From contig RDZD01000009.1 of the NCBI GenBank assembly GCA_004293815.1, positions 62,001-126,000 of the forward strand: DNA of 64,000 nucleotides. The letters run 5' to 3'. The position numbers and the translations under genes were made by a program. Positions 7,123-8,654 of this stretch are shown in pieces. How positions within the stretch are numbered: the first letter of the stretch is position 1; every line of letters begins with the position of its first letter. Under the pieces are notes generated by a model. The model made no database searches and was not told where the DNA came from. It saw nothing but the letters and a program-made list of their open reading frames with translations. The DNA comes from Cytophagales bacterium (GTDB taxonomy: Bacteria; Bacteroidota; Bacteroidia; Cytophagales; Bernardetiaceae).

Positions 7123-7151
7123 TTGGCTTAATTGGTCTTTTACTATATTTG
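7123..7151 (+). promoter_or_regulatory. promoter upstream of the J-domain/PspA genes
   Basis: TTG at 7123-7125 and TATATTTG at 7144-7151, 18 bases apart, match the Bacteroidota consensus. It is 256 bases upstream of the next start codon, an unusually long leader. Confidence 0.5.
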
Positions 7152-7407: not shown

Positions 7408-7794
7408 ATGTCTATTTTCGACCGCCTCAAGAATATCATCAGAGCCAATGTGAATGAGTTTAATTACTCAAACGAAGAGCTAGATAGCATAGACGCAGAA
7501 TATGAAAATCTTGTCAAAAAGCAGCAGAGTACACATAAATACCAAGCAAGCGGCGACTCTTACACGCCCAAGCCTAATCCGGCAGAGGCAGAAGAAAGAA
7601 AGCATTATGCGGCTCTTGGTTTGATGTATGGAGCTGATTTTGAAAAAATAAAGGCAGCCTATAAAGGGCTTATGAAACAATACCATCCCGATAAATTTCA
7701 AAATCAACCAGACAAACTCAAACAAGCACAAGAACAGACCCAGCGCATTAATATAGCTTATACCTACTTTAAAAATAAGTTTAACAAAGGTTAG
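7408..7794 (+). CDS. J-domain (DnaJ-like) protein with a PspA-like N-terminus
   Basis: A 128-residue protein. The C-terminal half (about 66-128) is a J domain: HYAALGL, helix II KIKAAYKGLMKQY, the His93-Pro94-Asp95 signature, and helix III-IV RINIAYTYFKNKF. Such domains stimulate the ATPase of DnaK. The first 18 residues, MSIFDRLKNIIRANVNEF, closely resemble the amphipathic membrane-binding helix of PspA/IM30 proteins (typically M-GIF-RL--I--ANIN-LLD). Residues 20-60 are polar and probably disordered. The next gene, 95 bases downstream, encodes a PspA-family protein. I infer that this is a co-chaperone that recruits DnaK to membrane-bound PspA polymers. No transmembrane segment or zinc finger is present. 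Confidence 0.85.
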   Translation: MSIFDRLKNIIRANVNEFNYSNEELDSIDAEYENLVKKQQSTHKYQASGDSYTPKPNPAEAEERKHYAALGLMYGADFEKIKAAYKGLMKQYHPDKFQNQPDKLKQAQEQTQRINIAYTYFKNKFNKG

Positions 7795-7889
7795 CACAAG
7801 ATGTCATGATGTTGCTTCTGTTCAGCTCTTTAAACAAGACCTTTTCACCTTTACTAACCAGCCAGAATAGCAATTTTTCCAACAAAACT

Positions 7890-8654
7890 ATGTTTAGCTT
7901 CCTCAAAAAATTATTGACTTTTGGTAAATCTGAAGCAAATGACTATTTAGACAAAAAGGAAGACCCTATCAAAATGTCTGACCTGCTCGTGCGTGACCTC
8001 AAAAAAGAACTTGCTGAAAGTCTTAGGGCCTTAGCAGAGGTCAAAACCATTGCCATTAGTGCCAAGCGCGAGGCAGAACTCAATAAGCGAGGAGCTCTGG
8101 AATATGAACAAAAAGCCATCATACTGCTCAACAAGGCTAGCACGGGTGAGATACCTGAAGCCGATGCCGACAGGCTTGCTGAGCAAGCTTTGGCACACAA
8201 AAGAAAACTAGACGAGAACGCCACACAACAAGAAGCTAACCTCAAAAACTATAGTGAGTTGGTGGAAAAACTAGAACACAACGTACAAACTCTCAAGTCG
8301 CAAATTACTAACATCGAACAAGAAGTGAGGACACTCAAGGCTCGTTCAAGGGTGGGCGAAGCTACCAAAAGGCTCAATGAACAAATGTCTAAACTCAACA
8401 GTTCGGGTGCTTTGCATCACATAGAGCGCATGAAACAAAACGTCGAGGAGCTTGAGATATATAACGAAACACAAAACCTTGGCACGCCTTCTTCTACTAC
8501 GCACGAAACCAGTAGCTTAGATGCTGAAATAAATGCGCTCTTGGGCATGTCTAGCAGCTCAGAAAAACCTTCAAACGCATTGCTTCAGCTCAAAAAAGAA
8601 ATCAAAAGCCGTCAGAACCCCGAAGACGATAGCTTTAAGCCTATCTTGCCTTAA
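7890..8654 (+). CDS. pspA: PspA/IM30 (phage shock protein A) family protein
   Basis: A 254-residue, almost fully helical protein of the PspA/VIPP1/IM30 family, the bacterial relatives of ESCRT-III that coat and protect the inner membrane. I chose the ATG at 7890, not the in-frame one at 7806, because MFSFLKKLLTFGKSEANDYLDKKEDP aligns with the family's amphipathic first helix and conserved LxKxEDPxKM motif. Residues 30-220 form long coiled coils (VRDLKKELAESLRALAEVK and later heptads). The tail from about 210 is Ser-rich and ends with KQNPEDDSFKPILP, longer than in E. coli PspA. No pspBC or pspF is near; regulation is therefore different from enterobacteria. It probably shares a transcript with the J-domain gene. 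Confidence 0.85.
   Translation: MFSFLKKLLTFGKSEANDYLDKKEDPIKMSDLLVRDLKKELAESLRALAEVKTIAISAKREAELNKRGALEYEQKAIILLNKASTGEIPEADADRLAEQALAHKRKLDENATQQEANLKNYSELVEKLEHNVQTLKSQITNIEQEVRTLKARSRVGEATKRLNEQMSKLNSSGALHHIERMKQNVEELEIYNETQNLGTPSSTTHETSSLDAEINALLGMSSSSEKPSNALLQLKKEIKSRQNPEDDSFKPILP

What the first reader, a model, noticed from the sequence alone, without database searches (positions are those of the whole stretch)
7408..8654. J-domain protein with a PspA-like membrane helix encoded directly before a PspA-family gene
The 128-residue J-protein begins with MSIFDRLKNIIRANVNEF, which looks like the amphipathic first helix of PspA/IM30 proteins, and ends with a canonical HPD J domain. The next gene on the same strand encodes a PspA-family protein. 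In Chlamydomonas chloroplasts the J-protein CDJ2 brings HSP70B to VIPP1 (a PspA homolog) and remodels its assemblies. I infer a bacterial counterpart: a dedicated J-protein that co-assembles with PspA through a copied helix and lets DnaK disassemble the polymer. I know of no described bacterial pair of this form.
Basis: partly seen in the sequence, partly recalled or inferred. Interest (0 to 1): 0.68.

Follow-up and report, generated by a model that had tools for sequence, protein, structure and literature searches.

The report
PspA-partnered bacterial J-protein with PspA-like helix
Many Bacteroidota, and some gut relatives of cyanobacteria, carry a small Hsp70 helper protein that starts with the same membrane-binding helix as the membrane-repair protein PspA and usually sits beside its gene, which suggests a bacterial way of taking PspA assemblies apart or rebuilding them that I could not find described.

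Summary
Window 7408-7794 encodes a 128-aa J-protein (Pfam DnaJ 3.9e-11, intact HPD) and the next gene, same strand, is PspA (PF04012 6.9e-34; true start 7890, not 7806). The PspA-like helix is real. A PspA helix-α0 profile scores this N-terminus above all 1912 control N-termini, and 30 of 37 family members beat shuffles that keep the amphipathic pattern. The neighbourhood is conserved. In the order, 71 of 194 genomes have the J-protein; 69 of them also have PspA and 44 have the two genes adjacent, 41 with J directly upstream. Elsewhere in the phylum and in Gastranaerophilales the order is J-CesT/Tir-PspA, J-PspA or PspA-PspC-J, with changing flanks. In Cytophagales a PspA duplication seems to have split the operon into J-PspA and CesT-PspA pairs. 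One correction: the J helix matches the canonical PspA/Vipp1 α0, not its own neighbour's. Most likely this is a dedicated DnaK adaptor that docks through α0 on PspA at the membrane and drives ATP-dependent remodelling, functionally parallel to chloroplast CDJ2. Direct binding and disassembly are inferred. I found no bacterial description in the papers searched. Novelty: new variant of a known kind.

The parts
7123..7151 (+). candidate Bacteroidota-type promoter (TTG-N18-TATATTTG), 257 nt upstream of the J start
   Evidence: 9 matches in the window against 2.06 expected by shuffling; a consensus match only
7408..7794 (+). alpha0-J protein gene (128 aa)
   Evidence: DnaJ PF00226 3.9e-11; whole-family profile 8.5e-42
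7408..7461 (+). PspA/Vipp1-like amphipathic helix alpha0 (residues 1-18; helix 3-15 in the model)
   Evidence: PspA-alpha0 HMM 17.7 bits; 18.7 bits against a shuffle maximum of 12.9; helix 3-15, low confidence; hydrophobic moment 0.56, p 0.027
7471..7530 (+). second predicted helix, residues 22-41, acidic linker
   Evidence: pLDDT about 50-57; no match to PspA alpha1, the profile match stops near column 25
7579..7785 (+). J domain (residues 58-126)
   Evidence: pLDDT 81-90 from residue 61; PDB J domains, probability 1.00
7684..7692 (+). HPD motif
   Evidence: sequence; HPD in 36 of 37 family members, HQD in one
7795..7889 (+). 95-nt gap between J stop and PspA start
   Evidence: sequence; in L005/L006 the two genes overlap
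7890..8654 (+). PspA/IM30-family gene (254 aa), the J-linked paralogue
   Evidence: Vipp1 in PDB 7.7e-11; fold matches Vipp1/PspA; tree
7890..7961 (+). N-terminal alpha0 of the PspA, diverged from the canonical motif

Best explanation
The gene encodes a class C J-domain protein dedicated to PspA, the bacterial ESCRT-III-like membrane protein. Its N-terminal helix carries the alpha0 motif of PspA/Vipp1, and inferably places it on the same anionic or stressed membrane or inside the PspA assembly. Its HPD J domain then recruits DnaK and triggers ATP hydrolysis, so that DnaK captures PspA and the polymer is disassembled or remodelled. Shown here: the J and PspA folds, the alpha0 resemblance beyond amphipathicity, conserved adjacency and co-occurrence, and one DnaK in the genome. 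Inferred: membrane binding by this helix, contact with PspA, DnaK stimulation, and the direction (disassembly, assembly or both).
For: Profile tests of alpha0. In the order, 71 J genomes, 69 with PspA and 44 adjacent. In the phylum, 36 of 39 J genomes have a strong PspA, against 57 of 392 overall. Linkage recurs in different arrangements: J-PspA; J-CesT/Tir-PspA; PspA-(DUF4178+PspC)-J; divergent J/PspA with the other PspA superclade in f4; and J-PspA-DUF4178 in Gastranaerophilales. Flanking genes differ. HPD is kept in 36 of 37. A single DnaK is present. Precedent: HSP70B/CDJ2/CGE1 assembles and disassembles VIPP1, and E. coli DnaK can replace HSP70B (PMC10602608; PMC6882379). Vipp1 binds DnaK2 in Synechocystis (PMC4297356).
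Against: No physical interaction or activity data exist. Many PspA genomes lack the J-protein (23 of 92 in the order), so PspA does not generally need it. In several families the J gene is unlinked. The J helix does not resemble its own partner's alpha0. Some J members have weak alpha0 scores (L021, L141), and the f14 members examined lack the FDR-type N-terminus. Co-occurrence statistics are not corrected for phylogeny.
Confidence: 0.7

Rival explanations
1. Alpha0 is only a membrane or curvature anchor. The J-protein brings DnaK to stressed inner membrane to handle damaged membrane proteins, in parallel with PspA under shared regulation, without touching PspA.
For: Isolated PspA/Vipp1 alpha0 binds anionic membranes by itself (PMC13051332). 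The J helix differs from its partner's alpha0. The gene is unlinked in several families.
Against: Near-strict co-occurrence with PspA even when unlinked (69 of 71 and 36 of 39), and repeated linkage in different arrangements and PspA clades.
Confidence: 0.2
2. A chaperone for biogenesis: J/DnaK keeps newly made PspA monomeric or prevents mis-assembly, a role shared with or replaced by the CesT/Tir-like protein.
For: J precedes PspA, with very short gaps or overlap in f3. CesT/Tir lies between J and PspA in f48, f35 and one Gastranaerophilales genome. After the inferred duplication each paralogue kept J or CesT.
Against: It does not by itself explain why the J-protein carries the alpha0 membrane motif.
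Confidence: 0.08
3. The pair is an accident of neighbouring genes and the N-terminal helix is a generic amphipathic helix.
For: The helix is short, and adjacency alone could be inherited synteny.
Against: Adjacent in 44 genomes with different flanks; across two phyla; the helix beats shuffles that preserve the hydrophobic pattern (family mean 12.2 bits against a maximum of 1.3).
Confidence: 0.02

Closest known systems
Chloroplast CDJ2-HSP70B-CGE1 acting on VIPP1 (Chlamydomonas)
   Same: A J-protein dedicated to a PspA-family ESCRT-III protein, handing it to an Hsp70; E. coli DnaK can substitute for HSP70B in vitro (PMC6882379).
   Different: I recall no PspA-like alpha0 in CDJ2 and could not read the original paper. 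No CDJ2 homologue was found in Synechocystis (PMC3720927). The present protein is bacterial, about 128 aa and operon-linked to pspA. Sequence relationship to CDJ2 was not tested.
CesT/Tir-PspA dyads (Ravi et al. 2024, PMC11237479)
   Same: The same PspA superclade; in f48, f35 and one Gastranaerophilales genome the PF22550 CesT/Tir gene lies between J and PspA.
   Different: That survey mentions no DnaJ, J-domain, Hsp70 or DnaK. In Cytophagales the J-linked PspA has no CesT/Tir gene beside it.
Class C bacterial J-domain proteins (DjlA, AtcJ, HscB)
   Same: An HPD J domain joined to a client- or location-specific segment.
   Different: An N-terminal PspA-type alpha0 instead of a transmembrane segment or C-terminal extension; partnered with PspA.
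PspA/Vipp1 helix alpha0 (MGLFDRxxRV motif, PMC13051332)
   Same: The J-protein N-terminus MSIFDRLKNI (MSLFDRLKNI in the sister species) resembles the motif and scores with the PspA alpha0 profile.
   Different: It is not followed by the EDPE linker and ESCRT-III helices but by a linker and a J domain.

Membership tests
Class C J-domain protein | J domain with HPD motif | tested here: met
   PF00226 3.9e-11; HPD in 36 of 37; J-domain fold
Class C J-domain protein | no G/F region, zinc finger or C-terminal substrate domain of class A/B | tested here: met
   Only DnaJ above cut-off in Pfam; the protein ends with the J domain
Class C J-domain protein | stimulates DnaK ATPase | not testable with these tools
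   biochemistry needed
PspA/IM30 family (neighbour gene) | PF04012 over cut-off, alpha0 plus long coiled hairpin | tested here: met
   6.9e-34; model helices 2-24, 26-84, 90-172; Vipp1/PspA top fold hits
PspA/Vipp1 alpha0 (J-protein N-terminus) | profile similarity beyond amphipathic pattern | tested here: met
   profile-profile 96.7% probability, single comparison without its own null
PspA/Vipp1 alpha0 (J-protein N-terminus) | lipid-induced helix, membrane binding | not testable with these tools
   needs circular dichroism or liposome assays
CDJ2 orthologue | sequence orthology to CDJ2/DJC73 | not tested
   no CDJ2 sequence was in hand; functional analogy only
CDJ2-like function | Hsp70-dependent assembly or disassembly of a PspA-family polymer | not testable with these tools
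   inferred from genomic context and alpha0

The most novel reading that the evidence does not exclude
Bacteria have a dedicated Hsp70-based counterpart of the ESCRT-III/Vps4 pair: an alpha0-J adaptor that enters PspA polymers through a PspA-type helix and lets DnaK take them apart. In Cytophagales this system became specialised after a PspA duplication, with the J-protein supplying the canonical alpha0 motif that its diverged partner PspA has lost.
Probability: 0.4. Interest if true: 0.85.

Novelty: new variant of a known kind. Interest (0 to 1): 0.72.

Why it matters
How bacterial PspA/Vipp1 polymers are recycled is open. PMC8281802 states it is unclear which ATPase plays the Vps4 role, PMC11237479 that it is unknown how PspA without an associated AAA ATPase is regulated, and PMC3720927 that cyanobacteria lack a CDJ2 homologue. 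A conserved J-protein bearing the PspA α0 motif, in operon with pspA, points to DnaK as that ATPase in many Bacteroidota and Gastranaerophilales, and can be tested directly with purified proteins.

Tried and rejected
Chance adjacency was rejected. A generic amphipathic helix was rejected for most family members, but about 7 of 37 are not distinguishable from shuffles one by one. Copying of the helix from the neighbouring PspA is not supported. The J segment after α0 does not match PspA α1. The J-PspA-DnaK complex could not be predicted (single chains only). The first J searches, by one sequence and by a narrow alignment, mixed true members with ordinary DnaJ; a broader alignment (A2) separated them. 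Cyanobacterial proteins of about 740 aa with a C-terminal J domain, are not counted as members (long proteins without an N-terminal match). Fold search with the J model gave J-domain matches only in its J-domain part.

Full report
**What is in the window.** The J-protein gene is at 7408-7794 (+), 128 aa. Its only Pfam match over cut-off is DnaJ at residues 65-123, E 3.9e-11. The next gene on the strand is a PspA/IM30 protein, PF04012 E 6.9e-34. The ORF caller starts it at 7806, but homologues start at the position equivalent to 7890 (MFSFLKKLL... here, MLSFLKKLF... in the sister genome, MWIFFKRLF... in Bernardetia), and the upstream extensions in the two closest genomes are unrelated. The real gap is therefore 95 nt. 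A Bacteroidota-type promoter match lies at 7123-7151. The genome has one DnaK and one PspA over cut-off, although the assembly is about 85% complete.

**Structure.** The J model has helix 3-15, helix 22-41 and a J domain from 58 to 126; the first two helices are of low confidence and the J domain is good, matching solved J domains. The PspA model has a 2-24 helix followed by the long hairpin, and its best PDB matches are Vipp1 and PspA (by sequence).

**Is the first helix like PspA α0?** I built a profile from the first 20 residues of 53 PspA proteins and scored 37 members of the J family against 1912 other N-termini from the same loci. The window protein scores 17.7 bits and no control reaches it; the best-scoring control, at 11.4 bits, is itself a PspA fragment. 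Shuffling residues only within the hydrophobic and the non-hydrophobic class keeps the amphipathic pattern. The family mean is 12.2 bits and the highest shuffled family mean is 1.3; 30 of 37 members have p < 0.05. Profile-profile alignment gives 96.7% probability over 25 columns, as a single comparison. A 2026 review gives the α0 motif of PspA/Vipp1 as MGLFDRxxRV (PMC13051332), and family members read MSIFDRLKNI, MSLFDRLKNI and VGLFKRIKNI. The J helix is nevertheless much closer to canonical PspA α0 (mean score 47, up to 56) than to the α0 of its own neighbour (19). So the motif is shared with the PspA family, but it was not recently copied from this neighbour. Homology and convergence cannot be separated on 20 residues.

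**Is the neighbourhood conserved?** In 194 genomes of the order, 71 carry the J family. Of these, 69 also carry a PspA and 44 have the two genes within 500 nt; 41 have J immediately upstream on the same strand, and three (family f4) are divergent. By family: f1 10 of 11, f3 13 of 13, f15 5 of 5, f18 13 of 15, f14, f22 and f8 none. One of the two J genomes without PspA has the J gene at a contig end. In 392 genomes of the phylum, 39 have a clear J member, selected by me as A2 E <= 1e-20 with a short ORF (one borderline member, G266, at 1.6e-20, is included); 36 of them have a strong PspA, present in 57 of 392 genomes. Fisher p is below 1e-28 in both samples, but without correction for phylogeny. 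Flanking genes differ between loci while the pair stays together. In f48 and f35 a CesT/Tir gene (PF22550, 3.4e-47) lies between J and PspA. In f55 the order is PspA, a DUF4178+PspC fusion, then J. Three genomes of the Gastranaerophilales group have J-PspA followed by a downstream gene or J-CesT-PspA-DUF4178, so the pairing reaches a second phylum; J is rare there (4 of 60).

**A duplication history.** A tree of 77 PspA proteins shows two superclades. In the one that holds the window's PspA, f48 and f35 carry a PspA with both J and CesT beside it. The Cytophagales families f1, f3 and f18 carry two: one beside CesT without J (L255-L262) and one beside J without CesT. The J-linked copies group together (19 rows, 94/78). 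The simplest reading is duplication of a J-CesT-PspA unit followed by reciprocal loss. It is inferred, and support for the J-linked group is moderate. The f4 linkage involves the other PspA superclade and the opposite orientation, which speaks against simple inherited synteny.

**Mechanism.** Chloroplast HSP70B/CDJ2/CGE1 assembles and disassembles VIPP1 with ATP, completely disassembling rods in vitro (PMC10602608), and E. coli DnaK can replace HSP70B (PMC6882379). Synechocystis Vipp1 binds DnaK2 (PMC4297356), yet no CDJ2 homologue was found there (PMC3720927). The α0-J protein has what a bacterial equivalent would need: a PspA-type membrane-targeting motif, an intact HPD and genetic linkage to PspA. 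I put 0.7 on a PspA-directed DnaK adaptor and 0.4 on the stronger version, in which α0 co-assembles and the polymer is disassembled.

**Against known systems.** Two large Psp surveys do not mention the pairing in the searches I made of them: PMC11237479 has no DnaJ, J-domain, DnaK or Hsp70, and PMC9239133 has no J domain, DnaK or HSP70. Full-text searches of the held library found no bacterial J-PspA pair. Subscription papers, including the 2020 review of bacterial J-proteins by Barriot and colleagues, were not available, so prior description cannot be excluded.

Noticed in passing
L119, L122, L129, L135 (and, by first residues only, L133, L141), families f52/f47/f44: Where the alpha0-J gene is unlinked from pspA it often sits in a run J - membrane-anchored rhodanese - sigma-54 AAA+ activator without an N-terminal sensor, an echo of PspE/PspF that stays below the NCBIfam cut-offs.
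   Followed up: partly
L131 764-1851: PspA - (DUF4178+PspC fusion) - J, with HQD instead of HPD in the J domain, so this copy may be impaired in DnaK stimulation.
   Followed up: partly
L266 5107-5601; L269 3638-4180: Short proteins near CesT/Tir-PspA pairs begin MGLFDFF / MGLFDRFKRKEE, again like PspA alpha0; possibly another alpha0-bearing partner.
   Followed up: no
L016, L043 and family f14 hits: f14 genomes often carry two copies of the J family, and the two members examined (L016, L043) lack the FDR-type N-terminus; a canonical PspA lies elsewhere in 11 of 12 of these genomes.
   Followed up: no
L263 3297-3743, L264 3179-3622, L265 3106-3555, L270 3287-3730: A conserved protein of about 148 aa (MPKFxILKxGVNExLI...) follows canonical PspA genes; one copy is weakly CesT-like, E 4.7e-07.
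   Followed up: no
L241, L243, L245, L247: Short J-proteins with MGDIFKRLVNLAKAEISH-type N-termini in larger genomes from the phylum of the Gastranaerophilales genome; in L243, L245 and L247 they lie next to a deaminase-like gene, with no PspA seen within about 1.5 kb.
   Followed up: no
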